22,920 nucleotides of DNA from a virus. This document shows positions 1,259 through 22,820 of this stretch, one piece after another; within the stretch, counting starts at the first letter, position 1; every line of letters begins with the position of its first letter. Under the pieces are notes generated by a model. The model saw nothing but the letters and a program-made list of their open reading frames with translations, was not told the origin of the DNA and did not search any database. The stretch covers positions 1 through 22,920 of IMG/VR virus record IMGVR_UViG_3300025086_000263; one strand, given 5' to 3'. The position numbers and the translations under genes were made by a program.

Positions 1259-1413
1259 GATGTTGGCACTGTAACACAAGATTGATTTGGGGTGGTGACC
1301 ATGACTGCCACGAAGATAGTGCTTTTGTTATGGAAACAAATCTAAGCTGTCCTAAATGTAAATCTTTAGTACTTGTGTACTACCCGAATGAGGATGAAGA
1401 GGAAGAAGAATAA
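1255..1413 (+). CDS. 52-residue zinc-ribbon protein
   Basis: Small gene fitted exactly between helicase and polymerase: its ATG overlaps the helicase stop (ATGA, 1255-1258) and its TAA overlaps the polymerase ATG (TAATG, 1411-1415). The protein starts MRCWHC and has SCPKCKS at residues 31-37, giving two CxxC pairs, the usual layout of a zinc ribbon. A further Cys and His lie between them in DHDCHE (15-20). It ends in an acidic tail of seven residues. GAGG at 1241-1244 may serve as ribosome site. The zinc role is inferred from cysteine spacing. The position suggests a replication accessory factor, for example a partner of helicase or polymerase, but I do not recognise a named family. Loss of the detached primase zinc domain is not a likely explanation, because that domain is N-terminal and would lie left of the window. 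Confidence 0.8.
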   Translation: MRCWHCNTRLIWGGDHDCHEDSAFVMETNLSCPKCKSLVLVYYPNEDEEEEE

Positions 1414-3275: not shown

Positions 3276-3282
3276 AAAAGTC

Positions 3283-3312
3283 TTGCATGTGCTTTTTGAT
3301 ACATGCTACAAT
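3283..3312 (+). promoter_or_regulatory. Sigma70-type promoter with extended -10, ahead of the ssDNA-binding protein
   Basis: In the 66-base gap after the polymerase, TTGCAT (3283-3288) and TACAAT (3307-3312) are 18 bases apart. The -10 matches TATAAT at five of six bases and is preceded by TGC, giving the extended form TGnTACAAT. The -35 matches TTGACA only in TTG, as tolerated with an extended -10. Transcription would start near 3319-3321, about 20 bases before the ATG at 3342. The site would give extra messenger for the ssDNA-binding protein and the genes after it through host RNA polymerase. It is a sequence call without experimental support. Confidence 0.6.
3285..3306. repeat. Inverted repeat in the promoter spacer, possible operator
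   Basis: GCATGT (3285-3290) and ACATGC (3301-3306) are perfect inverted copies separated by ten bases. They fill the spacer between the -35 and -10 boxes, with the left arm overlapping the -35. This is a usual geometry for a repressor or activator site. It is not followed by a T run, so it is not a terminator. Six-base arms can arise by chance; confidence is modest. Confidence 0.35.
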
Positions 3313-3341
3313 TCAATTCTAAACACTAAAGGAGTTAGCAA

Positions 3342-3857
3342 ATGGCTAAAATTACTGTAACAGGAATCGCTCAATGGGCAAAAGTATTTGAAGAGAACCG
3401 TGACCTAGAAGGTTATCAGGGTCAGTGGAAAGATACTGATGGACGTTGTACTATCAATGTTATCTTAGATGAAGATAATTATTCTAAGGTAAAGAATGCA
3501 GGGTGTATGTCTAATGGTAAGGATGATCCACAAGGACGTGGTATGGACATAAAGTTCTCACGTAAGTTTGACACACCAAATGATTGGGATGGTGGAGCAC
3601 CATCAGTATACAAGTCAGATGGTAGTCTGTGGAACTTTGAAACCGATGGTGTCATTGGTAATGGTTCAGAAGTTCTTGTGGAGTTAGACATCTACAAAAA
3701 CAAAAACTATGGTACTACTACTACTCGACTTGAGAGAGTAAAGGTAATCAAACATTTGGAGTATGACTCATCTTCCTCTGATAGAGAAGATCCATTCACA
3801 CAGAATGTTGCTTCAACTGCTACAAAGGAAGTCGCTGCTGAAGAAATCCCATTTTAA
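3342..3857 (+). CDS. Single-stranded DNA-binding protein (gp2.5-type)
   Basis: 171-residue protein between the polymerase and the nucleases, preceded by AGGAG and its own promoter. It coats exposed single strands and recruits partners at the fork. The body (about 1-140) is mixed beta and charged with many aromatic residues, as in OB-fold proteins. A low-complexity Ser/Asp/Glu linker follows, and the protein ends in AAEEIPF. An acidic tail closed by Phe is the hallmark of both T7 gp2.5 and bacterial SSB (DDDIPF). No catalytic motif is visible. I base the call on size, tail and context, not on a strong core motif. The nuclease gene follows after ten bases. Confidence 0.75.
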   Translation: MAKITVTGIAQWAKVFEENRDLEGYQGQWKDTDGRCTINVILDEDNYSKVKNAGCMSNGKDDPQGRGMDIKFSRKFDTPNDWDGGAPSVYKSDGSLWNFETDGVIGNGSEVLVELDIYKNKNYGTTTTRLERVKVIKHLEYDSSSSDREDPFTQNVASTATKEVAAEEIPF

Positions 3858-3867
3858 GGAGTGAGTA

Positions 3868-4719
3868 ATGCCTAACATTGAAACACTCGTTGAAGATATC
3901 TATGGTGTCATTGAAGGAAAGGGTGGGTGGGATAAGACAATCACAGATTATCTAGCAAAAAATATTTCTCAAATAGCTGAATCAAGGTTTAAAGAACCTC
4001 AGAAACCCAGAGGGTATTTAAGTTTATCCTCTGTGGGTTCACCCTGTAAAAGAAAGACTTGGTATAGAATAAATAAAACAGAGGAAGCTGCACCGCTAAA
4101 ACCTCAACTACTTGGTCTTTTCTTTTACGGGGATCTTTTAGAAGCCTTAGTCCTTTCACTTGCTAAAGCGGCAGGACATGATGTTCAAGGTGAGCAGGAC
4201 AGACTATCAGTTCATGGTATCAAAGGTCACAGAGATGCGGTCATTGATGGTATTACTATTGATGTAAAGTCTACCTCACGTTATGGTATGAATAAGTTTA
4301 AGACAAACTCATTACGTAACGATGATCCCTATGGTTATATAAGTCAGCTTAGTTCCTATGTCTATGCAGGTAAAGATGATCCTCTAGTTACAGACAAAAA
4401 TCGTGGTGCTTTTCTTGTCGTACAAAAAGATAGTTTCGAACTACACTTAGATATGTACGACTTTGATAAAGAACTTACTACTAAAGAAAAAGAAATAGAG
4501 GAAGTAAAAAATATAGTTACTGGTAAATTACCAGATCAAAGACTGAAACCTGTACCGCAGTCAGGTGCATCTGAGAATACTAAACTATCTTATGCATGTA
4601 GTTCATGCGAGTATCGTAAGATATGTTGGCCTGAAGCTCGTGTATTTAAATACTCACATGGTAAAGAGTATCTAATTGACGTAGTTAAAAAGCCCAGAGT
4701 AGAGGAGCTTATAGATTGA
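3868..4719 (+). CDS. PD-(D/E)XK exonuclease with Fe-S cysteines (Cas4/RecB-nuclease-like)
   Basis: 283-residue nuclease. The catalytic core is visible as GHRDAVID (120-127, Asp123) followed by IDVKSTS (131-137, Asp132-x-Lys134), then the RecB-type QxxxY motif as QLSSY (160-164). A single cysteine lies before the core (Cys60 in GSPCKRKTWY) and three follow it (Cys244, Cys247, Cys253 in ACSSCEYRKICWPEA). This one-plus-three layout is that of the 4Fe-4S cluster in Cas4 and AddB. No other CRISPR gene or array is present, so a phage recombination or end-resection role, filling the place of the T7 gp6 exonuclease, is the likely reading. The ribosome site AAGGAG stands just before ATG. The stop overlaps the next start. 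Confidence 0.82.
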   Translation: MPNIETLVEDIYGVIEGKGGWDKTITDYLAKNISQIAESRFKEPQKPRGYLSLSSVGSPCKRKTWYRINKTEEAAPLKPQLLGLFFYGDLLEALVLSLAKAAGHDVQGEQDRLSVHGIKGHRDAVIDGITIDVKSTSRYGMNKFKTNSLRNDDPYGYISQLSSYVYAGKDDPLVTDKNRGAFLVVQKDSFELHLDMYDFDKELTTKEKEIEEVKNIVTGKLPDQRLKPVPQSGASENTKLSYACSSCEYRKICWPEARVFKYSHGKEYLIDVVKKPRVEELID

Positions 4720-5072
4720 GTAGACGTGCCAAACAAAAAGGGAGATTAGGTCAACAGGAAATAAGAGATGCTTTGCTTGAGTCGTTTCCTGAACTAGAAC
4801 CAGACGATGTAAAGTCTACAGTTATGGGAGAAACTGGTGCAGATATCCAGTTATCCCCTGCTGCTAGAAAATACATACCTATTTCTATAGAAGTAAAAAG
4901 AAGAAAGTCTGCACTCAAGACTGTGTATGATTGGATAAAGCAATGTACTAACCATGACAAAGGTGACCCTGTAGTTTTCTACAGATCAGATAGACATCAA
5001 TGGTTAGTAATATCAGAACTACCACACTACCTTAAACTGATAAGGAGTTTAACAGAAGATGGCAAACAGTGA
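4716..5072 (+). CDS. Hjc-like PD-(D/E)XK endonuclease, candidate Holliday-junction resolvase
   Basis: 118-residue basic protein starting at TTG (4716), chosen because AGAGGAG lies eight bases upstream and the start overlaps the previous stop as TTGA. The fold signature is Glu15 in KGRLGQQE, Asp43 in GETGADIQL, then IEVKRR with Glu59-x-Lys61, and a later region (GDPVVFYRSD near 83-92) resembling the last strand of archaeal Hjc. In T7 the junction-cutting enzyme gp3 is a different PD-(D/E)XK branch; this protein probably fills that role. It could equally be a nicking or host-DNA-degrading nuclease. Immediate pairing with the Cas4-like exonuclease supports recombination or DNA processing. Confidence 0.68.
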   Translation: MSRRAKQKGRLGQQEIRDALLESFPELEPDDVKSTVMGETGADIQLSPAARKYIPISIEVKRRKSALKTVYDWIKQCTNHDKGDPVVFYRSDRHQWLVISELPHYLKLIRSLTEDGKQ

Positions 5073-5301
5073 CGTAGTACAAATGAAACAGGTTAAGATT
5101 TGGGATGTGCTATCAGGTCCATACCAATGTGATTTACCTGATGAACAAGACGTACACTACAATGTATGCAAAGTTGAGATAGAAGGAAAGGTAATACAAA
5201 TGGAATACTTTTTTGATAGCTTCAATGACGCATATGAAATGGTAAAATATTTTCAGTCTAACATCGAACCTCTTGAGCTAGAGATTGATGATCGTGATTG
5301 A
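5059..5301 (+). CDS. 80-residue acidic protein of unknown function
   Basis: Begins inside the end of the nuclease gene (14-base overlap), with AGGAG at 5043-5047, eleven bases before ATG. A second in-frame ATG at 5083 could also serve as the start. The protein is acidic, with a beta-rich middle (VCKVEIEGKVIQMEYFF) and a helical part (DAYEMVKYFQSN), and ends in ELEIDDRD. It has no membrane segment or cysteine pair of note. I do not recognise a family. It sits in the coupled series of replication genes, so it is expressed with them. Confidence 0.7.
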   Translation: MANSDVVQMKQVKIWDVLSGPYQCDLPDEQDVHYNVCKVEIEGKVIQMEYFFDSFNDAYEMVKYFQSNIEPLELEIDDRD

Positions 5302-8814: not shown

Positions 8815-9011
8815 ATCCCTTCAATGAAGGTCAGGTTGCTTTTAGAAAAGGTGAGTTGGGTAATCCATACCCAACCAATACTAACAATAACAGAAGTTGG
8901 GAGTTTGGTTTTAATACTGCATACTTCACCAACCTAAAAAAAGTAAAAGAGTATGAGCAAAAAATTAGCAGAAGAAGCGAAAAAGTTTACAGAGAAGAAA
9001 CGAACCTCTAA
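8766..9011 (+). CDS. Small unknown protein resembling the Rmf/CrpP-type short fold
   Basis: The frame is open from ATG 8766, but the first 15 residues lie inside the DUF3310 gene and look like shadow sequence. The conserved-looking core begins NPFNEGQVAFRKGELGNPYP and goes on to SWEFGFNTAYF. This is the xGxxAxxxGxxxNPY...WxxGF pattern of short Rmf/CrpP-like proteins, some of which bind ribosomes. A Lys/Arg/Glu-rich tail follows. AAGGA at 8797-8801 points to a start near 8811, where the codon is ATA and overlaps the previous stop as ATAA. The protein would then have 66 residues. The start is uncertain and the family likeness is from memory of the pattern. Confidence 0.6.
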   Translation: MVSKQNARHNEGKKKINPFNEGQVAFRKGELGNPYPTNTNNNRSWEFGFNTAYFTNLKKVKEYEQKISRRSEKVYREETNL

Positions 9012-9156
9012 AGCTATGAAGCCCCTCACGGCAAGAAGATACCTAGCAGGTCAAGCACTTGCTGGGTTACTTCCTAGCGTGAAAGGGGCTTCACAAATGG
9101 CAGATGTAAAGAGAACAGCCTACGATTGGGCAGACTATATGCTAGAAGATGATTAA
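8953..9156 (+). CDS. Short conserved phage protein of unknown function, last gene of the + strand arm
   Basis: 67 residues, overlapping the previous gene by 59 bases. After a basic start (MSKKLAEEAKKFTEKK) it contains LTARRYLAGQALAGLLPS and ends in RTAYDWADYMLEDD. Many phages carry short proteins with this same outline (a T-x-R-x-Y-x-A-x-x-AL-x-G helix, then an AD-x-ML helix), which supports a true gene; its function is unknown to me. The ribosome site is weak. The stop TAA (9154-9156) overlaps the stop of the opposing gene. The middle of the gene holds a long hairpin (9018-9092). Confidence 0.7.
   Translation: MSKKLAEEAKKFTEKKRTSKAMKPLTARRYLAGQALAGLLPSVKGASQMADVKRTAYDWADYMLEDD
9018..9092. 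other. 75-base nested hairpin inside the last + strand gene
   Basis: GAAGCCCCT (9018-9026) pairs with AGGGGCTTC (9084-9092), and CACG (9027-9030) pairs with CGTG (9078-9081), leaving a two-base AA bulge. The pairing extends one base outward. Inside, GAAG (9035-9038) pairs with CTTC (9070-9073) and ACCTAGCA (9041-9048) pairs with TGCTGGGT (9060-9067) with one G-T wobble. It is far richer in G+C than its surroundings. No T run follows on either strand, so it is not a standard intrinsic terminator. It lies 61 bases beyond the stop of the - strand operon and could stabilise or process the 3' end of either transcript. The pairing is seen; the role is inferred. Confidence 0.6.
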
Positions 9157-12100
9157 CGAGTTATTTGTATTGCAGGTCCAATACTTTCGCTAGGATCTTC
9201 TTTAGCAATTACATCCATAATGTATTGTCTTCTGTCTATTTCATTTTCAATACTTGTGGCTCTTGCTAGATACTCTTTGGCACTTTTAGCACCATTAAAT
9301 TTGTCAGGGTATCTAGCAATAATACCGTCTAGTTTTTTATTGCCTACATCTGCAGTAATCAGTTCGTATTGATTTCTTATGTATCCTACTGTTCTTTTCT
9401 TTAACTTAGGATTCATTAATGCATTTTGAAAAGCTGCCTCTACAGCTTTCTCTTCTGCTTTAACATACGTATCTATAAATGCCTCTAAGTAATTTGCTTT
9501 TAGAGAGTTTCTTTCTCCATCAGACATAGGCACTTGATCTAATTCATCATAAGTAAGATTTGCATACTTATTATTTTTCCCACCTAACATTACATCTTCT
9601 TTCCAGACATCAAATATAACATGCAACTTTTGCGACAAGTTGTATTGAACTTGATAGGCAAGACTACTATTACGTACACTTTTATTTGTATAAAGCTTAT
9701 ATTCTTTTAGGTTAAGTTTTGTAATCTCTCTTTGTAGTCCAGTGCTTGGTGGTTCTTGTGTCGTACCAAACTGCTTGGTAATAGGGTTATAACTACCCAC
9801 TGCATACGGATTAAATATGCTGTAGAGTTTATAATCATAACCTTCCTTACCAGATATTGGTGTTCTAGATTGATTATAGCTAAACATATTTGTGTCCAGT
9901 AAAAATCTAGATGCTTGGTTTTTTAACATTTCACTATTAAATATATCAGAGATAAAATTTCTTTCCCCGTAGATATCTGGGCTATCTTTTTCTCCGGGCA
10001 TAAGAGGTCTTGTATAAGCATTACCTGCTGCATCAAAGTTAAGTTGTGCATACACATCTCTTGCAATAGTTGCAGGATAGCTAAACGTAGCAATAATGTT
10101 ACCTAGCTCTTTTTCTAAACCTTCCGTAGCTTCGCCTTGATCTATTGATTTAAACAATTCCCTTGCGAAAGGGAACTCTAGGCTAAAGCTACCTGTACTC
10201 AGGTCTGGTACACCACCTAGTATCTCTGCTACATTTTCTTTTGTTGTAGTAGGATTAATAGGAAGCTTGTTTATATATCTATATATCAAGTCACCTAGTA
10301 AAAGGTTAGCTGACCAAGGTCCAGCAACTCTAGCAAGATCTATCTCACCTGCACCACCTTCAAGTTCCATCTTATCAAAATCTATTTCGCCCTGCTTGGC
10401 TGCTGCAGCATATACACCACCTAATAATAATGATATACCTGTCATCTGTCGAGCAAGCCTATCATTTGTAGTTTTTATACCATCACTCCAAGCACCACCA
10501 AAACTTCTTTTAGTAACTTCATCTAGCTTATCTAGACCACCAGTGACCATACCAATAGGTGTATAGTCATTAATGTATTCTAAATGGTTTGCCAAGTATC
10601 TTGGAAATGGTATATCTGCACCTGCAGAAATTAAGTATGGATACTTTCTGTGTAGCTGTTGTAGTGCTGATGCACCACGACCAAACAAAGAAGAATCTTT
10701 TTTATAATCTCTTTGAAAGGTAAATCTTTTTGCTTCATCTACGGCTTTATCTAATACGTTATCTGGTAAGTCTTTTAAAGATCCACCATTTAAAACAAAC
10801 TCAGAAAAGTTTCTACCTAATAGAGGGTTGTTTACTTCTCTAAGTTGTCTATCTATAGAAGAATACAGAGCACCTTGTTTAAATACTGCATCAGTTGCAA
10901 TGTTAGCAATGTTTACTGCCCTACCGATTCTAGATGCAAAACTATTACTATTAGTTTGATTGAGTGTACGAGTATTTTCATAGAATAAATCTCTGTATTT
11001 AATCGGTGCATCTTGCATTAACATGTCTTTGGCAACTATAGCTTCTTCACGATTCATAGTAAGGCCACGTAAGTTTGACAGTGTACCACCTACCCAACGT
11101 CTATTTACAGTGCCATCAGGTAGTTTTTCCCCAAGTGAAACACGAATAGCATTTTTCCAGAAGTGATCTGATATATCAATAAAGGTGTTAAAACCTTGTG
11201 TTGTTACGTTAGCAACGGTTGTACCTATTTGTGATGTCATAAATGCAATTCTTAATGCATCTGTATCTTGTAATCCTCGTAAGGCTTTCTGAGGAATACT
11301 AGGTGCATCTGCATTTTTATTTTTGAAACCTTGCTCTCTACCGCCTACAGCTTCAAATAGATCAGCAACTTCTCTGTCAGCTAAACTAGAAATACCATGA
11401 TTAGCTAGTACATCTATGTTTGCAAAAGTTTTTTTAATTTGACCTGCTTCACCAAGGAGTTTACCTGCTTTAGATAACTCTGCTAAAAATATATAAGAGA
11501 ACTCTTCTGGTGATAGTCCATATTTTTCTCTTATATTATCTGCGAGTAAAGAATCTATAAGTCTTTCACCGTCAGGCTTACGTAGCTCTTCTGTTATTGC
11601 TGCTGTTATTCTTTGACCCGGTTTTAGTTTTAATACATCTTTCATTTCTATTGCAGCAGCAGTAATACTTTTTACAGTATCTAAATCAAGACCTGCATCA
11701 AGCATTCTGTTACCTTTAGTGTTTAAAACTTTATCTTTTAGTTCTTGTCCTCTTGCAACCAAATCAGGATCTAAAGGATCTAACTTTTCATTTAACTTTT
11801 TTGCACGTACAAGATTAACAGCATCAACTACATCCTCTAAAGTCTCATCTATTATCTTTGGTTTTGCATTTGTAATAGTTGTATTGGCTGCTCTATTTGC
11901 CTCTGCTCTAGCTTTTTTACCAACTTGTATATTTCTCATTGTAATATCTACAGCCTTGTTTGCTTTCTTAGCATCCAATGCACCAAAAGCTCCCCCCATA
12001 GTTGCACCAAAAGCTCCAGATATTAAACCATCTCGTATTACATCACCCTTTGTATACGTATAATCATCTATTGTTTCTGCTCTTGTCTCTTGTTGTGCGT

Positions 12101-13811: not shown

Positions 13812-14339
13812 TTAATTACCTCTTGCCATTAAACCTACAGGAGCTTCTTCTTTAGGAGCTTCTTCTGTAGGTTCTTCTTCCATATCAAGTTCACCAACTT
13901 CATCTATAAACACTTCTATTGCTGACTCATTTTTCTTTAAGTCTTGAAGTTCTCTATCTATTTCTCTTAAACTTGCATCCACCTCTTCAGATAAATCTTG
14001 TTCAACCATTGAGTATGGTACACCTACAGCATCTAATATTTTAGCTATAAACTCCATAAGTGGTTTCTTTACTGCAAGACTTACATCAATAGTGTGTACA
14101 CCTTCCAATACAACAGAACGAAGGTAACCTTCAACAAGTGTTTCTACATCAAAACCAAAGTCTATTGCAGCGATAACTTTTTCCATTACATCAGCATCGT
14201 TAAAATAATTTATATGCCCCATTAAAGCTTGTTCAGCATTAACTATTTCTGGTGGTTGTTCGTATGGTGCATTCCCCGGTTCTCTTACAAGAGATTGCCC
14301 CGGTATCGGTGCTGTAAAATCAAAGGCTTCTTGTTTCAT
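13812..14339 (-). CDS. 175-residue acidic putative virion protein
   Basis: Begins with the ATG overlapping the lysozyme gene's stop (ATGA). The N-terminus is extended and Pro-rich, with PIPGQSLVREPGNAPYEQPP at 12-31, a segment I associate with structural proteins of marine phages. A helical domain follows (about 35-115), then a coiled-coil-like part (SLREIDRELQDLKKNE) and a long acidic Glu/Pro tail. It contains no cysteine, membrane span or enzyme motif. It is probably a minor virion or ejection component given its neighbours. The function is unknown. Confidence 0.75.
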   Translation of the reverse strand: MKQEAFDFTAPIPGQSLVREPGNAPYEQPPEIVNAEQALMGHINYFNDADVMEKVIAAIDFGFDVETLVEGYLRSVVLEGVHTIDVSLAVKKPLMEFIAKILDAVGVPYSMVEQDLSEEVDASLREIDRELQDLKKNESAIEVFIDEVGELDMEEEPTEEAPKEEAPVGLMARGN

Positions 14340-15127
14340 TTACCTGTCCTTCTTGGTACTAGTGATGAGTTTGTAGCTGGTAACTTAACTAACTCTGCTT
14401 CCATAATTCTACGGTTTCTATTTTCACCATCATTATCTTCAGTTAGTGTTAGTATTGCTTCTGCTATTCTGTCATTGTCACCAGACTTTAAAGCTTCTCT
14501 AATTCTTTTTGGAACTCTTCCGTAGTTATATGTAATAGACACTGTAGCAGCTTTAGCATTATCAGATAAACTATCCCAAGATTCTCCGATAGTATTTTTT
14601 ATTATTGGTACAAAGTCATCTGTTATTCTTTTCTCTAAAGATTTTAATGCTTGTTCTTTACTTACAACAGTGTCTTGTGTAACTTCAACTGGCTTACCAG
14701 TGTCATCATACAAAGTATCTGTACCATATCCTACTCTATAATGATCAACATCCCAATAAGCTTTATCTTTAAAACCCTCAAACTGTATTAAACTATTCCT
14801 AGATATTTCTTTCCAGTTAGCACCTTTAGCTACTGCTGTAGCACCAACACCTTCTGCTCTAGTCTTTGGTCTTTTTTCTCTATCCTCAAGCTCATCAATA
14901 ATATCTGAGGCTGTAAGAGTGCCAAAGTCATATTCAGAAATACTAGAAGAATATCCACTTATAACATCTGATATAGGCTCTTCTTCCGTAATTTCTTGAG
15001 TCTCTTTAAATCTTTGTAGTATACTACCAGATGATTTCATTGGTTTTGGTTTTTCTAGATTTTTCATCCTAGATGAAAAACTACCTACCCTAGTTTGTTT
15101 ATCACCTAAATTAGTTTCTTCTGCCAT
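14336..15127 (-). CDS. Lysozyme-domain (T4 lysozyme / GH24-like) protein with long disordered N-terminus
   Basis: 263 residues. Residues 1-100 are polar, low-complexity and probably disordered. From about 105 a muramidase-like domain follows: SLIQFEGFKDKAYWDVDHYR (112-131) and then VGYGTDT. Glu117 and Asp126 are nine apart, as Glu11 and Asp20 in T4 lysozyme. SDNAKAATVSITYNYG near 200 resembles the second conserved region (LS...QQALLSFxFNxG). The residue at the usual catalytic Thr place appears to be Arg131, and the segment after Asp is one shorter. The protein would cut peptidoglycan, either during DNA entry as a virion lysozyme or at lysis as endolysin. The extended N-terminus and the setting among virion genes favour the first. 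No signal peptide is seen. Confidence 0.8.
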   Translation of the reverse strand: MAEETNLGDKQTRVGSFSSRMKNLEKPKPMKSSGSILQRFKETQEITEEEPISDVISGYSSSISEYDFGTLTASDIIDELEDREKRPKTRAEGVGATAVAKGANWKEISRNSLIQFEGFKDKAYWDVDHYRVGYGTDTLYDDTGKPVEVTQDTVVSKEQALKSLEKRITDDFVPIIKNTIGESWDSLSDNAKAATVSITYNYGRVPKRIREALKSGDNDRIAEAILTLTEDNDGENRNRRIMEAELVKLPATNSSLVPRRTGK

Positions 15128-15143
15128 AGTTTAATTCTTTCTA

Positions 15144-17462
15144 TTAATCAAAAGGCCATAACAAGTCCATCCAAAAACTTGTCTTCGCTTTCTCATCTGC
15201 AAATTCTAATTGCTTTCTAACAGCTTCCATATCTTTATCTGCTAACAGGAGACTTAATATTCTAGTCATTCTAGAGTCTTCAGCCCTAAAAGCCATATCC
15301 ATAATGTCTCTTTCTCTTTGCCAAAGCTCATCTAAATTTTTATTTGTAAGTGCATTTACATCTTTAGCATATGTTCTGTTATCTTCATTCTCTGCTGCAG
15401 TATTTAATGTTGCTACATTCTGTCTCCAGAGAGTGTTTGCTTGTGCAACAACTAATCTGTTTGTAGCATTAAATTGTTTTCTTTGTTCTCTTAATCCTGC
15501 ATTGTATTGTTTAGCAGCATTATCTTGACCTGCATTGTATTGACTTGTTGCATTTAAAGCAGAAGCATTAAACTGATCTGTTTGAAATACTAAGTTTTTC
15601 ATAAATTGATCTGTTTGGTTTTGACTTGAGGCATTAAACTGTTTAGCAGCATTATCTGCAGCAGCATCATTAAATAAAGATTGTACCATAGATTGAGCTT
15701 TAAAGATATTAGTTGCTTGTCTATTATTTAAATTAGTAATATCCATTTGTAAAAATGCATTTGCATTTTGTACCGCAGCTTGTTGCTCATTAGATAAATT
15801 CTGTGCTTCTAAATTTGCTATAGCAGCAGCTTCTGCCATTACCATAGCTTGTTGATTAGTTAAATTTTGTAAATTCATTGTATTTGCAATACGACTATTT
15901 TCTAAAGCTACCTGCTGTTCTGCGGTAAAATTCATATTAGCTACGTCAGCAATACGAGATGCATTCTGTACTCTTGATTGAAATGCCTGATCAAACTCTT
16001 GACCAATAAATTGAGCACGTTGTTGTGCTGATAGCATAGCACGTTGTTGACGGTTTGACAAGTTCTGCATTTCAAATTGTGCAACTGTTTGTGCATCAGC
16101 TTGGGCAATAGGTAATGCAGACTCCATAGCAGCCTGTACAACAGCCTGTCCTGCAAGGCTAGATGCACCTAATCCTCTAGCTGCCATCTTACCCATAGCG
16201 GCTCTCATAGCTCCTGCAGCCCATGTAGGTGTAGCACCACCCTCAAAATCTTGCATTAAGCCAGATAATTGTTCTTGTACCATAGCTTTTTGAGATGGGG
16301 TTGCTTGTGCAGCTTGTACTTGTTCTGTAAATGCAACAGCCTTTTGTGCATCTGCAACACCAGAGACAAGCTCACCTTCCTGTATTTCTCTTTGTACAGG
16401 ATTATCCATCATAATACCAGTACCTTGGGCAGCTTGCATATTACCTACAGCAGTTTTAGTTGGGTCTACTGTTGCAGCTTGAGCTAATGCTTCTGCAGAA
16501 ATTTCACCTTGTTCTGCCTGTACACCTTCTAATGCTTTATCGACATCTGCTTGTGATTGAGTAGCTTGATATAAATTTGCATCTATTGGGTCTGCAGCAG
16601 CTATTTGTGATGTTGTAGCTTTAGTAGCAGTATAACCTAAATTATCAGCTACACTTAAACCTGTAGCAGGATCAACAGTAAATTCTGGTATTTGACCTAC
16701 ATCCGAAGGTAATAAAGTAGTTGTTGTATCTCCTACATCAATTAATTGTGTATCTGATTTTGTAATCGTACCTTCAGGATCTGTTAAAGCACTTTCAAGC
16801 AAGTCTGAACTTGCTCCTGTCATTTTTAACAGTCTTTCTTGTGTTTGTTTTTGTACCTGTTCATTGTAAGCATCTGCATCTTTTTGATACTGTACAACAT
16901 CTTTATCATATTGAGCTTTATCTGCTACATACTTATCATAAGCTGCTTTATCTTGAAGATACTTTGCATTTTGTACTTTCCAATCTTCATATGGTTTATT
17001 TGCATTTTTTAACCAAGCAGCAACAGCACTAGCAATTACACTTTTTCTGTTAGGTGTACTTAATGGATATCTCTGAGTAACTGGATTATCTGTATTAGCA
17101 TTTCCAACACCTACTTGATAAGCAGTACCGTATTCAAATGTTTTATTGTCGGTTCTGTTATAACCACCTGCATATTTAGGTGGTTCATTTCCTATAGAAG
17201 TTGGTTGTTGTACTAGTTCAGGCTCTTTAGGTCTTTTAGGCATTTCTAAACCACCATCTGTATAACCTTTTATATAACCACCATTATTTAATTTTGCTAT
17301 TGGTTTTCCCATAGTCATTTTATTTAATGCACTGGACATTCTCCCAACACCAGAAGCTGCACCGGGATTAGATGCAAGAAAAGCTTGTATCTCATCCGAT
17401 TGGTTAGAACCATTATAGTTCCAAAATTTATTTAGATAAGTTTGTGTTTGAGTTCTATCCAT
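15144..17462 (-). CDS. Repeat-rich 772-residue virion protein, probable ejection protein
   Basis: Gln/Ala/Asn-rich protein in four parts. An N-terminal tail has NNGGYIKGYTDGG (59-71). A heptad coiled coil follows at about 160-205, with Tyr at 168, 175, 185, 192 and 199. Then comes a Thr/Asp/Ala-rich middle. From 461 to 670 there is a long helical array with a 22-residue period: NLSNRQQ at 467, NFTAEQQ at 511, NLTNQQ at 533, NLSNEQQ at 555 and NLNNRQ at 577. It then runs at 11 residues: Q[FY] at 608, 619, 630, 641, 652 and 663. The end is helical and charged, closing with FWMDLLWPFD. Periods of 11 and 22 favour right-handed coiled coils or amphipathic membrane helices. Together with its place before the lysozyme gene, this suggests a T7 gp14/gp15-like ejection role. 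No enzyme motif is seen. Confidence 0.78.
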   Translation of the reverse strand: MDRTQTQTYLNKFWNYNGSNQSDEIQAFLASNPGAASGVGRMSSALNKMTMGKPIAKLNNGGYIKGYTDGGLEMPKRPKEPELVQQPTSIGNEPPKYAGGYNRTDNKTFEYGTAYQVGVGNANTDNPVTQRYPLSTPNRKSVIASAVAAWLKNANKPYEDWKVQNAKYLQDKAAYDKYVADKAQYDKDVVQYQKDADAYNEQVQKQTQERLLKMTGASSDLLESALTDPEGTITKSDTQLIDVGDTTTTLLPSDVGQIPEFTVDPATGLSVADNLGYTATKATTSQIAAADPIDANLYQATQSQADVDKALEGVQAEQGEISAEALAQAATVDPTKTAVGNMQAAQGTGIMMDNPVQREIQEGELVSGVADAQKAVAFTEQVQAAQATPSQKAMVQEQLSGLMQDFEGGATPTWAAGAMRAAMGKMAARGLGASSLAGQAVVQAAMESALPIAQADAQTVAQFEMQNLSNRQQRAMLSAQQRAQFIGQEFDQAFQSRVQNASRIADVANMNFTAEQQVALENSRIANTMNLQNLTNQQAMVMAEAAAIANLEAQNLSNEQQAAVQNANAFLQMDITNLNNRQATNIFKAQSMVQSLFNDAAADNAAKQFNASSQNQTDQFMKNLVFQTDQFNASALNATSQYNAGQDNAAKQYNAGLREQRKQFNATNRLVVAQANTLWRQNVATLNTAAENEDNRTYAKDVNALTNKNLDELWQRERDIMDMAFRAEDSRMTRILSLLLADKDMEAVRKQLEFADEKAKTSFWMDLLWPFD
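15453..16082 (-). repeat. 66-base and 33-base coding repeats (22- and 11-residue units)
   Basis: This is the array inside the 772-residue protein. The left part (coded at 16064 and below) repeats every 66 bases, and the right part every 33 bases. Some units keep identity in DNA: CCTGCATTGTATTG occurs at 15496 and again at 15529, 33 bases apart. GTTTAGCAGCATTATCT occurs near 15509 and again near 15641. Recent duplication is therefore likely for some units. Periods were counted by hand from conserved residues. Confidence 0.75.
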
Positions 17463-17489
17463 TATAATTACCTATTTATATTTATAAAA

Positions 17490-17948
17490 TTACCAAGGCC
17501 AATAATCTTTTATGTCTATCCATCTCATATGGTGTAGGTATGCTGTAGAGCCAATAGCAGAGGCTGTTATAAGAAAGAAGATACCTGCTAGGGTTACTGC
17601 TAACTCTTGTCTTGCTATAGCGTCACGTCTTGCTTGGGCTTCTGCTTCACGTTTTTCTTGTAGAACTTCTTTCCTTATGCGGAGGAGTTCCAACCACTTG
17701 CTACGCCCATACGTCTGTGTGATCCATTCCTGCAATTCACTTTCAGCTTCTGCTGCTTGACGTACCTTTGCCCAACGATCTAGTGCAGTAGCATTTGTGC
17801 TTTTACTTGAGACACCTTTTTTCTGTAAAGTTTTTTTAGCACTGTCCGTTGCATCAAAGAATTTACCTATGTCTTTAGATAGTGCAGCTACGCTACGGCC
17901 TGTGCTTAAACCTAACTTTATTCCTGAAAGGATTGTTATGGGGTCCAT
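17490..17948 (-). CDS. 152-residue membrane protein with coiled coil
   Basis: GGAG precedes the ATG. Residues 55-115 are helical and highly charged (WLELLRIRKEVLQEKREAEA), and residues about 115-137 form one hydrophobic span (ELAVTLAGIFFLITASAIG). A short aromatic end follows, closing with DYWPW. The soluble coil lies before the span, so it is a tail-anchored type, opposite in layout to its upstream neighbour. No family name is recognised. As part of a run of three small membrane genes between the fibre and ejection modules, a role in lysis or envelope passage is plausible but not shown. Confidence 0.72.
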   Translation of the reverse strand: MDPITILSGIKLGLSTGRSVAALSKDIGKFFDATDSAKKTLQKKGVSSKSTNATALDRWAKVRQAAEAESELQEWITQTYGRSKWLELLRIRKEVLQEKREAEAQARRDAIARQELAVTLAGIFFLITASAIGSTAYLHHMRWIDIKDYWPW

Positions 17949-17950
17949 AA

Positions 17951-18313
17951 TTAGACTCCATCATCATTCATTATCATTCTGTTATGGTCACGGTTCATGT
18001 ACTTTAACTCTGTTTCAAGTAAAGCAATTCTCTGTTTGAGATCATTGATAGAACTAAATGAAGCAAGCATTGCTGCCATCTCTTCCCATAGTTCATCACT
18101 GTCTTCCCACAGTTCTATTATGTCAGACTTACTTTCTTGCACATCTCGTTTAAGATTTACTGTATTTTCTACAGCCATGCGACTAGCAAACTGTTCTACG
18201 TTTTCTTCTAATGATGATATAGTAGCTGCCTGTTGAGATACCCACCAGACTGCACCTGCTAGTTGTACAGCCATTGCTGCAACTAAAGCTATAGGAAGTT
18301 TCATGTTTTCCAT
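17951..18313 (-). CDS. 120-residue N-anchored coiled-coil protein, spanin-like outline
   Basis: The start overlaps the previous stop by one base (TAATG). Residues 6-25 (LPIALVAAMAVQLAGAVWWV) are a membrane span or uncleaved signal anchor. Residues 30-110 are polar, heptad-like helix (ISSLEENVEQFA, INDLKQRIALLETELKYMN). A short N-terminal anchor with a long periplasmic coil is the layout of inner-membrane spanins (Rz). No overlapping Rz1-type lipoprotein frame was noticed here, so this is only a structural likeness. It could also be a virion or membrane scaffold protein. Confidence 0.7.
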   Translation of the reverse strand: MENMKLPIALVAAMAVQLAGAVWWVSQQAATISSLEENVEQFASRMAVENTVNLKRDVQESKSDIIELWEDSDELWEEMAAMLASFSSINDLKQRIALLETELKYMNRDHNRMIMNDDGV

Positions 18314-18495
18314 TACTTACTCGCTACTTGTGAGTTACGAACCAAGAAGTCTTCCCACATAGGTTTGATCATCTTGTGGTTCTCATCTACTTTATACGAC
18401 ATGAGCAAGACTTTGGCATTGATTTGGTATATTTGGAGAGAACCCCAACTTAATAAACCTAACGCAACAATACCAATGACTTGCTCAAATTTCAT
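18313..18495 (-). CDS. 60-residue single-span membrane protein, holin candidate
   Basis: Residues about 5-24 (QVIGIVALGLLSWGSLQIYQ) are hydrophobic. The rest is a charged helix (VDENHKMIKPMWEDFLVRN). Its stop overlaps the next start (TAATG), so the two are translated together. Its size and single span fit small class III-type holins or pinholins, but such proteins lack sequence signatures, so the holin idea rests on size and neighbourhood only. Confidence 0.65.
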   Translation of the reverse strand: MKFEQVIGIVALGLLSWGSLQIYQINAKVLLMSYKVDENHKMIKPMWEDFLVRNSQVASK

Positions 18496-18498
18496 TTT

Positions 18499-18738
18499 TT
18501 ATGCAGCCTCATCTTCGTCTACAATTTCTGCTTCTACTGGTGCTTCCACAGATTGTGCAAGAAGATTAACAAAAGCTTCACGCCCAACGCTTAGTTGGTC
18601 TAAGTTAAATCTAGCACTTGATAGTTTACGATCTAAATCTGCTACATGATTAACCATAGTTTGTTGTTCTTGTGTTAAATCTTCTATTAAATATTCTTTA
18701 TCGTTGATAGTTATAGGGGTTTTTTCATTTTTTCCCAT
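18499..18738 (-). CDS. 79-residue acidic protein, possibly DUF6447-like
   Basis: AAGGAG precedes the ATG at a good distance. The protein reads ITINDKEYLIEDLTQEQQTM (9-28), then a helix with ADLDRKLSSARFNLDQLSVG and a Val/Glu/Asp/Ala-rich end. The outline (short beta hairpin T-I-N-x-K-x-Y, then a coiled coil with LDQL-x-VG) resembles small phage proteins that I recall as DUF6447; the link is not certain. Its function is unknown. It lies directly downstream of the fibre and its 72-residue companion, so it may be expressed late. Confidence 0.7.
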   Translation of the reverse strand: MGKNEKTPITINDKEYLIEDLTQEQQTMVNHVADLDRKLSSARFNLDQLSVGREAFVNLLAQSVEAPVEAEIVDEDEAA

Positions 18739-18760
18739 TGCTATTCTCCTTTGTTATAGT

Positions 18761-18979
18761 TTATTTATTATCTGCAATAGCTTTATCTACAGCAGTCATG
18801 TCTTCTGAAGTCCAATAGTCTTTGGCTTTCATCAGTTCTAAATGCTCTACGTTACGAGCTTTGGTTGCAGTCCAATCGTCTGCTTCCATGTCAGCAGGTT
18901 TTCCTGCGTTTAATACTTCAACACTATGACCCATTGCTGTGTAGTGCTGTGCAATTTGTTCTTTAGTTATTTCTTCCAT
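18761..18979 (-). CDS. 72-residue protein downstream of the fibre gene
   Basis: Starts five bases after the fibre stop. It is helical and acidic, with the segment WTATKARNVEHLELMKAKDY (31-50) and then WTSEDMTAVDKAIADN. I recall short proteins with ARNVxHLExMxAKDxWTxEDxT next to tail-fibre genes in marine phages, without a known function. A fibre-assembly or chaperone role would fit the location but is inference. No membrane span or cysteine is present. Confidence 0.7.
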   Translation of the reverse strand: MEEITKEQIAQHYTAMGHSVEVLNAGKPADMEADDWTATKARNVEHLELMKAKDYWTSEDMTAVDKAIADNK

Positions 18980-18983
18980 TTGT

Positions 18984-21900
18984 TTATCCTTCTAATGTTG
19001 TAATTCGTGCTTCTAATGCATCATTCTTTGCTGATAGTTCTTGTATTGCTTTAACAAGAACTGGTATTAATGCAGCTTCCGCAACTTCTTGAGATCCATC
19101 TGCTCGTTCATCCCAAAACTTAAACCCATCTTTAATGCCATTATCAGCATCAATCGCTGCTTTAACCTCTTGTGCTATAAAACCGTGTTGAGTTTTATCA
19201 GACTTAAATACTTCAGTAGAACCTTCTTCATAAGCAAGGAAAGTATCTGGCAGTTCTCCTAGAGTTTTGTACTTAAATGTACGAGGCTTTAGGTTATTAA
19301 TAAAAGATAAACCTGTTGTTGAATCTACAATGTCTTTTTTATAACGCTCATCAGATACCGTAGACCACGTTGCTACCCCATGTTGCGCTCTAATGTCAGA
19401 AGAACCGTTACCAAGAGTTGTATAACCTCCTGCACAATCTAAATTATATCCAAGACCGTGAGAATAGTTATCAGTTCCATCAACAGGATCACAGTATGGT
19501 CCTACTAAACAACAACCATCACCTGATGATAAATTAGTTTGATATGTTCCTGCTTTGTAACCAATAGCAAGATTATCAGTACCTGTTTGTGCATCAGACC
19601 CTGCTTCATATCCAATATAGGTGTTTCTAAATCCAGTAGTTGTGTTGAACCCTGCATAAGAACCGATATATGTATTACTATGACCAGTAGTGCTATTATA
19701 AGATGCCTGATATCCCATAACAACATTATCATTTGCAGTGGTGTTATTGATTAATGCATTTTTACCTACCGCAGTATTAGAAGACCCTGTGGTATTATAA
19801 TACATACTACTGTAACCAATAGAGGTATTGTTATTTCCAGTACTAATTGTATAAAGAGAAGAGCTACCCATTGCAACATTGTCACCGCCTGTAGTTCCAT
19901 TATGACCAGACCCACGACCTATATAAGTATTGTGTGTTCCAGTTGTGATATTATATCCTGACTCCCAACCAACCGTAGTGTTATTGTTTCCTGTGGTTAG
20001 ATTTCTCATAGCTTGATAACCCACTGCCGTTCCATATTCAGCACTAGTAGCTTCAAACATAGCACCTTGACCAATAGCGACATTCTGATTTCCCGAGGTC
20101 ATGTCATAACCTGCGTATGACCCTACAAGAACATTAGAGTTTCCAGTTAATACACCAAGCCCTGCTGCACTGTAACCTATTGCTACAAGTTCATTTGGTG
20201 TTGTTGCATTAAAACCTGAATTAGCACCTACTGCCGTGTTAAGAGTACCTGTTGTATTGTCTAGCAACGAAGCATATCCAATAGCAGTGTTGTCGGATAC
20301 TGTATTAGTATACAAAGCACTGTCGCCAACAGCAGTGTTGTTGTCTCCAGTAGAGTTGGTATATGCTGCAACATAACCTAAAGATGTGTTACGTCCAGTA
20401 GTATTGGTATATCCTGCTTGAAATCCCAGTGCTGTACTAAAACTTCCTGTGGTATTATAACGCAAAGCCTCACGACCCACAGCTACATTTCTAATCCCTG
20501 TCGTTGTTTGCCGCAAAGCATAATAGCCAACACCGACATGGCTTTCACCTGTTGTGTTTGTATATAAAGCATCGCCACCTATTGCTACGTTAGCCGTACC
20601 TGTCGTTGTGCTATAAGCTGCATTGTGACCAAATGCGTTATTTGAGCCACCTGTCGTCTGGCTGTTCAAAGACCCATACCCAACAGAAGTGGTATAAGAT
20701 GCGGTGGTGTTGGCTTGTAATGCGCCATAACCAACGCCAGTGTTTTGGGTTCCTGAAGTTATATTTGTTCCTGCGAAACCACCTATTCCAATATTATAAT
20801 CGCCAGTTAAAGCATTGCCATTTGCTCCAAGAGCAGAGTAACCAATACCAACACCATAGTCACCAGTAGTAATATCCGTTCCTGCAAATGAACCTAGTAA
20901 AACGTTCCTAACGCCTGTTGTGATATCATAACCTGCTTTATATCCAAATGCATTGTTGTAGCTTCCAGTGGTATTTGTAAAAAGAGAACCCCCACCAACA
21001 GAAGTATTATAAGATGCGGTAGTATTGTTCTGCAAAGCATCACGACCTATCCCTACATTATCTTGCCCTGTTGTATTATCATAAAGCACCCACTGACCTA
21101 TTGATGTATTATTACTACCAGTAGTATTACTATATCCTGCCTGATATCCTATACCTACATTAGATTCACCTGTAGTGTTATTATTTAAGGTTGACTGACC
21201 AACCCCTACATTTCTAATTCCAGTAGTGGTACTATAAACAGCATTTCTACCTATCCCTACATTACTTGCACCTGAAGTAACACTGTATAATGCTTGATAG
21301 CCAAGGGCTGAATTGCTATTTCCAGTGGTATGCTCTTCTAAAGCAAGCGATCCGACAGCAACATTATAAAAACCTGTGGTATTATCAGCTAGTGCTTTAT
21401 AACCTACTCCTACATTATCATAACCAGTGGTGTTGGCCTCAATTGCTTTATAACCTACTGCTGTGTTATTCGCACCAGTAGTATTCAACTCTAATGCTGA
21501 GTATCCAATACCAGTGTTATTTTCAGCAGTAGTATTAGTTGTAAGTGCAAAAGCACCTAAAGCTACGTTAGCTGCACCTGTAGTATTTGAACCTAATGCT
21601 GCATGTCCAACAGCAGTTCCATAGTTTGCGGTAGTATTAGCAAAAAGAGCATTTGTACCGATAGCAGTAAGTTGTGCTCCTGTGGTATTTGACTTAGCAG
21701 CTTGATACCCAAATGCCGTATTGTTATCTGCGGTAGTATTTTCACCTAAAGCAGCAACTCCCATCGCAGTATTATTATCACCAGTAGTGTTTGCATCTAG
21801 GGCAGTAGAACCAAGAGCAGAGTTATTTGCACCAGTGGTATTTGATAGCATTGTTTGTTGACCAACGGCAGTATTAGAAGCTCCGGTGGTAGTAAGTGAC

Positions 21901-22820
21901 AAAGCCTTATCACCCACACCAGTATTACCATCGGCTGTTGCTGTTGTTAAAACAGTATAACCTACAGCAGTGTTGTTAGTATTAGTAACATTTGCATCTA
22001 AAGCATATGCACCAATCGCAGTATTAGTAGACGCTGTAGTGTTAGCACCTAATGCGTTCAAACCAATAGCCGTGTTTTCACCTCCAGTAGTAATTGCGTC
22101 TCCTGCAGAAGCACCTAGTAGAGTATTATTAACACCAGTTGTAACTGCAGTACCTGCTTGGTATCCAACTGCTACGTTTAAACCAGAAGCTCCTGCGTTT
22201 TGTGTTTTGAGTGCTTGATAACCAATGGCAACACTTTCACCATTACCATCTTCTGTTGATAAAGCTTCATGACCGATTGCTATGTTTTTACCACCAGTTG
22301 TTAAAGCATCACCTGCAAACGAACCTATAGCTATGTTGTGATCACCTGTTGTAAGTGCAGTAAGAGCAGCATTACCTATAGCAATGTTATCACCACCGGG
22401 GCTTGAGCCATCTAAACTATCTAGTGCAGTTAAACCAAACGCTATATTTCTAGAACCAGTAGGAAAGTTACCATCTAGTCTAATGGTAGCATCTGTACCT
22501 TCATCGTCAAAAACTGTTATTCCATGTGTTGTTATTGATCCATCAAAAAATGCATTCTTATACATTAGTGATGATGTACCTAAGTCTACAGTATTATCTG
22601 TCTTAGGACGCATAACTGATGCAGTAATAACTACATCTTGCGTTGGACCAACGACTTCAATAGGTGCACCTTCAGCAGATGTACCATCGTGTGTATGACC
22701 AGAAGAAGAATTAAATGCGGATTCTACTGCATCAAACTCACCATCTAAATCAGAAGCATTAATAATGTTACCGTCAGCAATGTTATTTGCCGAATCATTT
22801 CTAGTGTAACCTGTTCCCAT
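18984..22820 (-). CDS. Giant repeat tail fibre with Peptidase_S74 chaperone end
   Basis: 1278-residue adhesion fibre. The N-terminal 60 residues (with NIINASDLDGEFDAVESAFN and GHTHDGTSAEGAPI) look like the virion-attachment part common in marine phage fibres. From about residue 124 to 1096 there are about 57 copies of a 17-residue unit of the form NNTAVGYxALxxNTTG, like YadA-head or beta-helix repeats, building a long trimeric stalk. A Cys-containing piece follows (Cys1103, 1104, 1110, 1129). The last 123 residues are the intramolecular chaperone: SDERYKKDI with Ser1156 and Lys1161 as the expected self-cleavage dyad, then HGFIAQEV and a terminal helix (LSAKNDALEARITTLEG). Cleavage before Ser1156 would leave the mature fibre. 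AAGG lies before the ATG. Confidence 0.93.
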   Translation of the reverse strand: MGTGYTRNDSANNIADGNIINASDLDGEFDAVESAFNSSSGHTHDGTSAEGAPIEVVGPTQDVVITASVMRPKTDNTVDLGTSSLMYKNAFFDGSITTHGITVFDDEGTDATIRLDGNFPTGSRNIAFGLTALDSLDGSSPGGDNIAIGNAALTALTTGDHNIAIGSFAGDALTTGGKNIAIGHEALSTEDGNGESVAIGYQALKTQNAGASGLNVAVGYQAGTAVTTGVNNTLLGASAGDAITTGGENTAIGLNALGANTTASTNTAIGAYALDANVTNTNNTAVGYTVLTTATADGNTGVGDKALSLTTTGASNTAVGQQTMLSNTTGANNSALGSTALDANTTGDNNTAMGVAALGENTTADNNTAFGYQAAKSNTTGAQLTAIGTNALFANTTANYGTAVGHAALGSNTTGAANVALGAFALTTNTTAENNTGIGYSALELNTTGANNTAVGYKAIEANTTGYDNVGVGYKALADNTTGFYNVAVGSLALEEHTTGNSNSALGYQALYSVTSGASNVGIGRNAVYSTTTGIRNVGVGQSTLNNNTTGESNVGIGYQAGYSNTTGSNNTSIGQWVLYDNTTGQDNVGIGRDALQNNTTASYNTSVGGGSLFTNTTGSYNNAFGYKAGYDITTGVRNVLLGSFAGTDITTGDYGVGIGYSALGANGNALTGDYNIGIGGFAGTNITSGTQNTGVGYGALQANTTASYTTSVGYGSLNSQTTGGSNNAFGHNAAYSTTTGTANVAIGGDALYTNTTGESHVGVGYYALRQTTTGIRNVAVGREALRYNTTGSFSTALGFQAGYTNTTGRNTSLGYVAAYTNSTGDNNTAVGDSALYTNTVSDNTAIGYASLLDNTTGTLNTAVGANSGFNATTPNELVAIGYSAAGLGVLTGNSNVLVGSYAGYDMTSGNQNVAIGQGAMFEATSAEYGTAVGYQAMRNLTTGNNNTTVGWESGYNITTGTHNTYIGRGSGHNGTTGGDNVAMGSSSLYTISTGNNNTSIGYSSMYYNTTGSSNTAVGKNALINNTTANDNVVMGYQASYNSTTGHSNTYIGSYAGFNTTTGFRNTYIGYEAGSDAQTGTDNLAIGYKAGTYQTNLSSGDGCCLVGPYCDPVDGTDNYSHGLGYNLDCAGGYTTLGNGSSDIRAQHGVATWSTVSDERYKKDIVDSTTGLSFINNLKPRTFKYKTLGELPDTFLAYEEGSTEVFKSDKTQHGFIAQEVKAAIDADNGIKDGFKFWDERADGSQEVAEAALIPVLVKAIQELSAKNDALEARITTLEG
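19533..22451 (-). repeat. About 57 diverged 51-base repeats coding the fibre stalk
   Basis: Period 51 bases (17 residues) over about 2.9 kb, coding xxNTAVGxxALxxNTTG units. Nearly all units keep exactly 17 residues; a few are longer (for example the unit DYGVGIGYSALGANGNALTG) or one shorter (RNTSLGYVAAYTNSTG). Copies are clearly diverged in DNA, so it is an old array under protein-level constraint. I counted the units by hand, so the number may be off by one or two. Confidence 0.85.

What the first reader, a model, noticed from the sequence alone, without database searches (positions are those of the whole stretch)
18984..22820. Fibre with about 57 seventeen-residue repeats and a self-cleaving S74 end
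Seen: nearly invariant 17-residue spacing through about 970 residues, then SDERYKKDI with the Ser1156/Lys1161 pair. Known: S74 domains assist trimer folding and cut themselves off. The constant unit length with strongly varied faces suggests a stalk of fixed rise per unit whose surface changes fast. The array is unusually long for a small podovirus and could set fibre length by unit number.
Basis: partly seen in the sequence, partly recalled or inferred. Interest (0 to 1): 0.5.

Follow-up and report, generated by a model that had tools for sequence, protein, structure and literature searches.

The report
Long repeat-built phage tail fibre
A marine phage tail-fibre protein built from 57 copies of a 17-residue unit and ending in a known self-cutting folding helper; related phages carry the same kind of fibre with anything from no units to about seventy, swapped and lengthened in whole units.

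Summary
The ORF lies on the minus strand (18984-22820, 1278 aa): 57 units of 17 residues over residues 124-1098 (49 of 56 intervals exactly 17; shuffled proteins at most 3 units), then a Peptidase_S74 domain with Ser1156/Lys1161. It reads as N-terminal anchor (1-123), beta-solenoid shaft, short distal tip (1099-1155) and self-cleaving chaperone (1156-1278), in a phage whose structural genes resemble HMO-2011-type roseophage CRP-345.

It is ordinary in kind: 124 of 50,697 phage records match the protein, and S/K is kept in 94 of 94 complete C-terminal relatives. Fifty-seven units exceed the 23-37 of six isolate fibres counted, but are joint sixth of 94 mostly metagenomic relatives (0-72).

'Surface changes fast' is not supported: dN/dS at variable positions is 0.16-0.33. 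Arrays change by whole-unit blocks. Two fibres, near-identical over anchor and most of the shaft, differ by exactly 210 nt (four units); others by 522 nt (ten). The window's array is a patchwork, and its tip and chaperone match (83%) a fibre with another anchor and 11 units. Handedness and trimer were not established: the models were monomers; weak sequence hints favour a left-handed beta-helix.

The parts
18984..22820 (-). tail-fibre gene, 1278 aa
   Evidence: open frame; PHROGs 23837, 6002 (virion structural) and 4636 (tail spike)
22452..22820 (-). N-terminal anchor, residues 1-123, shared with the fibre genes of CRP-603, CRP-345 and CRP-207
   Evidence: 67%, 62% and 57% identity to CRP-603, CRP-345 and CRP-207 over about the first 100 residues; that it anchors the fibre is inferred
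19527..22451 (-). array of 57 units of 17 residues, residues 124-1098
22080..22451 (-). units 1-7: units 1-6 are shared at the DNA level with relatives of the same anchor; units 4-7 look like one 4-unit super-repeat (17+19+17+17)
19527..22079 (-). units 8-57: simple 17-residue units; patches resemble arrays of other fibres (units 9-10 like L080, 36-37 like L006, 57 like L013)
19356..19526 (-). region between last unit and cleavage site, residues 1099-1155, holding all four cysteines; predicted distal tip after cleavage
   Evidence: its role as a tip is inferred from other S74 fibres
18987..19355 (-). Peptidase_S74 / intramolecular chaperone domain, residues 1156-1278
19353..19355 (-). codon of Ser1156 (predicted nucleophile)
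   Evidence: conserved 94 of 94
19338..19340 (-). codon of Lys1161 (predicted activating base)
   Evidence: conserved 94 of 94

Best explanation
It is the tail-fibre protein of a marine Caudoviricetes phage with HMO-2011/CRP-345-like structural genes. Residues 1-123 fix the fibre to the virion. The 57 units each make one coil of a beta-solenoid, so three chains form a stiff shaft of roughly 27 nm if the rise is 4.8 Angstrom per coil. Residues 1099-1155 become the distal tip. The S74 domain helps the three chains register and then cuts itself off before Ser1156, with Lys1161 as base. The shaft evolves mainly by in-register exchange, gain and loss of whole-unit blocks, which keeps frame and fold while changing length and surface. 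Shown here: architecture, conserved dyad, variable unit number, in-register indels, mosaic array. Inferred: anchoring role, trimer, coil geometry, cleavage, length in nm, receptor binding at the tip, recombination as the route.
For: array and dyad; S74 domain, dyad 94 of 94; anchor and neighbouring genes as in CRP-345; AF2: strands repeat every 17 residues, array pLDDT about 74-89 in blocks of ten; array profile: both solved-structure hits and the two Pfam families hit by more than one segment are left-handed beta-helix type, all weak; unit number, block exchange, mosaic.
Against: The S74 part and the linker of the AF2 model are low in confidence and the N-terminal model is poor. No solved structure matches the model at Foldseek E <= 0.001; the best is the MyRF auto-cleavage domain at 0.023. 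Structure alignment ranks right-handed beta-helix tailspikes first (Z 15.8, rmsd 3.1, 229 aligned), which conflicts with the left-handed sequence hints. No virion data exist for this phage in anything I saw. The long arrays come from metagenome assemblies, where mosaic repeats could in part be chimeric. Some complete relatives with long arrays and the same anchor end without an S-D-x-x-x-K motif (L061, 45 units; L063, 40 units), so the chaperone is not obligatory for such shafts.
Confidence: 0.82

Rival explanations
1. The array is not a passive stalk but a multivalent adhesin, like the YadA-type heads of trimeric autotransporters, binding along its whole length.
For: The half-unit G-x-x-N-[TV]-A-[IV]-G matches the YadA head motif GxNSVAIG (motif from passages of PMC9543794; alignment by eye). 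Arrays turn over in blocks while anchors stay nearly identical, as expected of a binding surface.
Against: No YadA-head family among the Pfam matches; unit 17 residues against about 14; no sign of positive selection at variable positions; several fibres with related S74 ends carry very few units.
Confidence: 0.3
2. The shaft is a right-handed parallel beta-helix like the P22/Sf6 tailspikes, perhaps with glycan-cleaving activity.
For: Second-look structure alignment: Sf6 tailspike Z 15.8, rmsd 3.1, 229 aligned; the 50 rows shown are tailspikes, lyases, epimerases and other beta-helix proteins at Z 12-16.
Against: Monomer model from an 11-row alignment; Foldseek itself gives no hit at E <= 0.001, and solenoids score high against each other in general; uniform short units leave little room for an active site; sequence profiles point weakly to left-handed helices.
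Confidence: 0.15
3. The shaft is an inert spacer whose units drift under purifying selection; host range sits only in the tip and unit number has little effect.
For: dN/dS 0.16-0.33 at variable and 0.15-0.20 at conserved positions; the stretch 1099-1122 is the most variable part of the C-terminus (23% mean identity to the window).
Against: Distal arrays are replaced wholesale between fibres whose anchors are 95-100% identical at the DNA level, more than drift would give.
Confidence: 0.4
4. The unit number and the patchwork are assembly artefacts of short reads in a repeat.
For: The viral arrays longer than 37 units seen here are metagenome contigs; many contigs end inside the array.
Against: Within the window's array no two units exceed 0.745 DNA identity, so collapse is unlikely; the short form of L065 recurs in L068, a different metagenome record; six isolate genomes carry arrays of 23-37 units.
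Confidence: 0.06

Closest known systems
Peptidase_S74 / intramolecular chaperone auto-processing fibres and spikes (K1F endosialidase, T5 pb1, phi29 gp12, MyRF)
   Same: C-terminal domain with the S-D-x-x-x-K motif, Ser to Lys spacing of five as T5 Ser1264/Lys1269 (PMC4690869, passages); profile match to 7dc3, 8jov and 6f45
   Different: the shaft before it is a uniform 57-unit array rather than a tailspike beta-helix, bullet domain or lyase
Phage fibre proteins with the same 17-residue units (PHROGs 23837, 6002, 4636; e.g. HTVC111P gp52, HTVC112P gp48, CRP-7 gp48, Venkman gp55, P-SSM2_298)
   Same: same repeat: 32, 30, 23, 33 and 37 units, each with an S-D-x-x-x-K string near the end; 124 of 50,697 phage records match the window protein by array or S74 end
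   Different: fewer units; other N-termini (the anchor search found none of these five)
YadA-like left-handed parallel beta-roll heads, above all BpaC (42 layers with a three-layer expansion, PMC9543794, passages)
   Same: repeat with an invariant Gly; long arrays; higher-order repeat; length change by whole layers already proposed there; one coil per unit as modelled here
   Different: about 14 residues per layer; outer-membrane anchor of autotransporters; no S74 end (the last point recalled)
Bdellovibrio mosaic adhesive trimer (MAT) fibres (PMC10769870, passages)
   Same: conserved N-terminal domain, beta-helix fibre, diverse tips, S74 or non-S74 end
   Different: cell-surface proteins of a predator with signal peptide; no 17-residue array mentioned in the passages read

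Membership tests
Peptidase_S74 (PF13884) | profile match above the curated cut-off at the C-terminus | tested here: met
   44.2 bits, cut-off 22, residues 1156-1224
Peptidase_S74 (PF13884) | Ser/Lys pair at S-D-x-x-x-K | tested here: met
   present; S and K in 94 of 94 complete C-terminal relatives (chosen by similarity to that region)
Peptidase_S74 (PF13884) | self-cleavage before Ser and release of the chaperone | not testable with these tools
   needs protein
Peptidase_S74 (PF13884) | trimeric assembly | not testable with these tools
   only monomer prediction was on offer
YadA-type LPBR head of trimeric autotransporters | 14-15-residue unit GxNSVAIGAxSxAx | tested here: not met
   units are 17 residues; no YadA-head family among the Pfam matches
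YadA-type LPBR head of trimeric autotransporters | left-handed coils | tested here: inconclusive
   weak sequence hits to left-handed helices against right-handed structural matches of a monomer model
Left-handed beta-helix (hexapeptide) proteins | Pfam gathering score | tested here: not met
   the window's segment scores 14.6 bits with LbH_EIF2B, cut-off 54. LbH_EIF2B appears in 7 of 11 segments (best E 0.002) and LbH_GLGC in 3 of 11 (best 0.0003), a resemblance rather than membership; six other families appear in one segment each
HMO-2011-type phage group | structural genes in the CRP-345 order | tested here: met
   fibre anchor and the 79-, 60-, 120-, 152-, 772- and 175-aa neighbours match CRP-345 in the same order (RNR too, 78%); only the part inside the window was tested. 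The 772-aa protein also has a match in 5 of 6 relatives' records searched (the sixth is a 5.8-kb fragment)
HMO-2011-type phage group | DNA polymerase with DnaJ-type CXXCXGXG motifs (PMC9038755, passages) | tested here: not met
   motif absent and no match to the CRP-345 polymerase at E <= 1e-4; nearest polymerase in the phage collection is CRP-6, 56%

The most novel reading that the evidence does not exclude
The fibre shaft is a recombination-built ladder: arrays of homologous coils let phages trade, add and drop blocks of whole coils in register, with a four-coil super-repeat (210 nt) as a frequent step. Fibre length and surface are then free, selectable traits while the anchor and the self-cleaving chaperone stay compatible.
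Probability: 0.35. Interest if true: 0.55.

Novelty: new member of a known kind. Interest (0 to 1): 0.35.

Why it matters
The fibre itself is one more member of a widespread kind. What could matter is the comparison: many natural length variants of one kind of shaft (0-72 units) on the same anchor family, including a pair that is near-identical over the anchor and some 40 units apart from exactly four inserted coils. That makes 'does fibre length matter for adsorption' a testable question in abundant marine phages.

Tried and rejected
Diversity-generating retroelement as source of variation: no reverse transcriptase (PF00078) in 5 of 5 records searched, the window record included; none is known to be complete, so this is weak.

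Recent internal duplication in the window's array: rejected; mean unit-to-unit DNA identity is about 0.5 at short lags and the maximum is 0.745.

Fast positive selection on unit faces: rejected. Unit pairs were chosen at >=70-80% DNA identity, are not independent, and in the unrestricted run lean to the first units. With distal units at the loosest threshold the variable positions reach 0.325 against 0.151 for conserved ones, which is relaxed constraint rather than a value above 1; positions 12-13 give 0.09-0.22.

Fold by structure search: the model of residues 895-1278 has no solved match at E <= 0.001 (best MyRF auto-cleavage domain, 0.023); the predicted-virus library gives 27 matches at E <= 0.001, several of them named as S74-type or adhesin proteins; the N-terminal model (mean pLDDT 63) has no match at all. 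No YadA-type head appears in the printed rows; that excludes nothing. No NCBIfam model matches. The window protein alone has no sequence match among solved structures at E <= 1, and its C-terminal 184 residues alone only chance-like ones (best E 0.099; one tail fibre, 8jov, at 0.44); the S74 matches need the profile.

Literature: in the listings of searches, and in the passages read from eight papers, I saw no description of this 17-residue array or its length steps. The library lacks most subscription journals, and the motif search only finds letters printed in text.

One search dropped 6 of 36 sequences as near-identical. Of the 33 complete anchor-bearing ORFs, four (L053, L054, L056, L090) look like one sequence and L109/L114 another; the 35 super-repeat arrays include such near-duplicates too. 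Alignment A1 used 11 of the 13 segments listed, A3 11 of the 12 listed (L112 left out, similar to L116), A2 all 16. One row (L067/L069, 0 nt) is a unit-calling artefact, not an indel. An indel scan with a stricter DNA search found only the L065/L066 and L066/L068 pairs; one search used looser unit matching.

The S74 pattern in the script was too narrow: it missed ends that do carry the motif (for example L074 and L078, seen), so its '-' entries are not used; motif absence in L061 and L063 rests.

Full report
What is there. The reading frame is on the minus strand, 18984-22820, 1278 residues. The 17-residue period is beyond doubt: lag-17 identity 0.39 against a shuffled maximum of 0.14, 57 units against at most 3 in shuffled proteins. 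Forty-nine of 56 intervals are exactly 17; the rest are 16, 18, 19 or 20. The consensus is N-N-T-A-I-G-Y-Q-A-L-Y-A-N-T-T-G-S, and Gly stands at position 6 in 56 of 56 scored units of the window and in about 99% or more of 3,917 pooled 17-residue units from 157 arrays. Residue 1156 starts the Peptidase_S74 match.

Who carries it. The window is a 22.9-kb virus record with no further sequence held. The fibre anchor, genes after it up to the 175-aa protein (in the same order) and the ribonucleotide reductase match Roseobacter phage CRP-345, one of the new isolates of an HMO-2011-type study that places the group in Podoviridae (PMC9038755, passages). The fibre gene of CRP-345 itself (gp50) shares the anchor (62%) but has no array (2 chance-level units). 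The window's DNA polymerase is not of the HMO-2011 type; the nearest in the phage collection is CRP-6 at 56%.

S74 end. A profile of the last 384 residues of 11 fibres matches the MyRF auto-cleavage domain (7dc3, E 7e-9), a phage tail fibre (8jov, 1e-7) and a long-tail-fibre distal subunit (6f45, 4e-6); a fourth hit at 0.025 falls in the array (7ar9). Ser1156 and Lys1161 are both kept in 94 of 94 complete ORFs with a matching C-terminus, the window included; these were chosen by similarity to that region, so the count shows constraint within the family, not independence. T5 pb1 uses Ser1264/Lys1269 with the same spacing and an Arg of the neighbouring chain, so that cleavage requires a correctly formed trimer (PMC4690869, passages). 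Cleavage here is inferred.

How long is long. Among the 94 complete ORFs with a related C-terminus, unit numbers run 72, 70, 69, 62, 58, 57, 57, 55 ... down to 0. Among 33 complete ORFs with a related anchor, 21 carry 11-72 units and 12 carry four or fewer at the scan threshold. Six isolate phage fibres counted have 23 (CRP-1), 23 (CRP-7), 30, 32, 33 and 37 units, all fewer than 57, and two bacterial frames reach 80 and 81. So 57 is in the upper tail but not exceptional, and the same anchor is used with and without an array. Long arrays with this anchor also occur without an S-D-x-x-x-K motif at the end (L061, 45 units; L063, 40 units).

How the array changes. L003 has the same anchor (97% DNA, 99% protein) yet shares only the first four units with the window; from unit 5 on no unit exceeds 0.73 DNA identity. 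Among 34 pairs (from 30 non-redundant sequences) with anchors at least 95% identical in DNA, the run of shared leading units is 2-4 in 21 pairs and 6-34 in 13 (in a few pairs the contig ends first). Length differences are whole units: L065 and L066 have anchors 99.5% identical, 12 units at 0.987 before and 23 units at 0.996 after an insertion of exactly 210 nt, four units; the likeness runs on to unit 43 of L065, with dips, and is lost beyond it. 210 nt recurs in L066/L068 (probably the same event) and L073/L074; a ten-unit, 522-nt difference recurs in 8 junctions that probably reflect one or two events; 843, 303 and 51 nt occur once each. Units 5-6 of the window are 0.96-1.00 identical in DNA to units 15-16 of L001, L004 and L007, so the window has the ten-unit-shorter form.

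The window's array is a patchwork. Units 1-6 belong with its anchor family (best matches 0.90-1.00); units 9-10 are 0.92/0.90 identical to units of L080; units 36-37 are 0.94/0.88 identical to units of L006; unit 57 is 0.88 identical to unit 11 of L013; the remaining units have best matches of 0.65-0.80. The tip and chaperone are 83% identical to L134, a fibre of 513 residues with 11 units and no match to the anchor. The simplest reading is in-register recombination between co-infecting phages (inference).

Not a fast-evolving face. In homologous units (1,099 distinct pairs from 250 array pairs) dN/dS is 0.16 at the variable positions 1, 7, 8, 11 and 17 and 0.16 at conserved ones; with distal units only it is 0.20-0.33 against 0.15-0.20. 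The variety of faces within one array is therefore more likely old diversity reshuffled in blocks than rapid point change.

A higher-order repeat. Of 116 arrays with at least 20 units, 35 show a four-unit super-repeat, about 70-72 residues, one unit of which is 19-21 residues long. The window carries one such block (units 4-7) and simple units after it. BpaC of Burkholderia shows a comparable three-layer expansion, and its authors already speculated on length change by whole layers (PMC9543794, passages), so the idea is not new in kind.

Fold. AF2 on a monomer (residues 895-1278) puts strands at 17-residue spacing with pLDDT about 74-89 in the array and poorly models the tip and S74 part. Solved-structure search finds nothing at E <= 0.001; a second alignment ranks right-handed tailspikes first, Z up to 15.8. 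Sequence profiles of nine units point elsewhere: the only two hits in the PDB at E <= 1 are chains named CA3 and CAG1 (E 0.022 and 0.13; gamma-type carbonic anhydrase subunits, left-handed helices, both recalled), and the two Pfam families hit by more than one of 11 segments are left-handed beta-helix models. None is significant alone. One coil per unit is likely; handedness and trimer are open. At 4.8 Angstrom per layer, the BpaC value, 57 coils would be about 27 nm (inference).

Verdict. A real, well-read feature, of a common kind. Interest lies in the set of natural length variants, not in this protein alone.

Noticed in passing
L001, L003, L004, L053, L063, L078, L083, L100 (fibre ORFs): Arrays with a four-unit super-repeat (about 17+17+21+17 residues), so a longer loop would recur every four coils; 35 of 116 arrays of 20 or more units show it, near-duplicates included.
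   Followed up: partly
window 1413-3275 versus 13812-22820: The DNA polymerase (56% to Roseobacter phage CRP-6, no match to CRP-345) and the structural genes (CRP-345-like) appear to come from different phage groups.
   Followed up: partly
window 19356-19526 (residues 1099-1155): All four cysteines of the 1278-residue protein lie in the presumed tip (1103, 1104, 1110, 1129); a metal or disulfide site is possible, and three are also seen in L134.
   Followed up: no
L127 (CRP-1) 1956-5198 and 8959-10782; L050 (CRP-7) 14446-16857: In CRP-1 the anchor relative (gp43) and the 23-unit array (gp37) are in two different genes; gp37 lacks an S-D-x-x-x-K string in its last 220 residues although its end aligns with the S74 part. 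CRP-7 has a 23-unit array in gp48.
   Followed up: partly
L213-L233: Relatives of the array occur in 21 bacterial contigs, 16 of them Bacteroidota by record title (phylum recalled from the names); the best frames hold 2-81 units (80 in L213, 81 in L216), the last two contigs hardly any. Whether they are prophage or host genes was not checked.
   Followed up: partly
window 17951-18979: Small unnamed genes between the fibre and the 772-aa protein: the 60-, 79- and 120-aa ones have matches in CRP-345, the 72- and 79-aa ones in CRP-1 and CRP-7.
   Followed up: no
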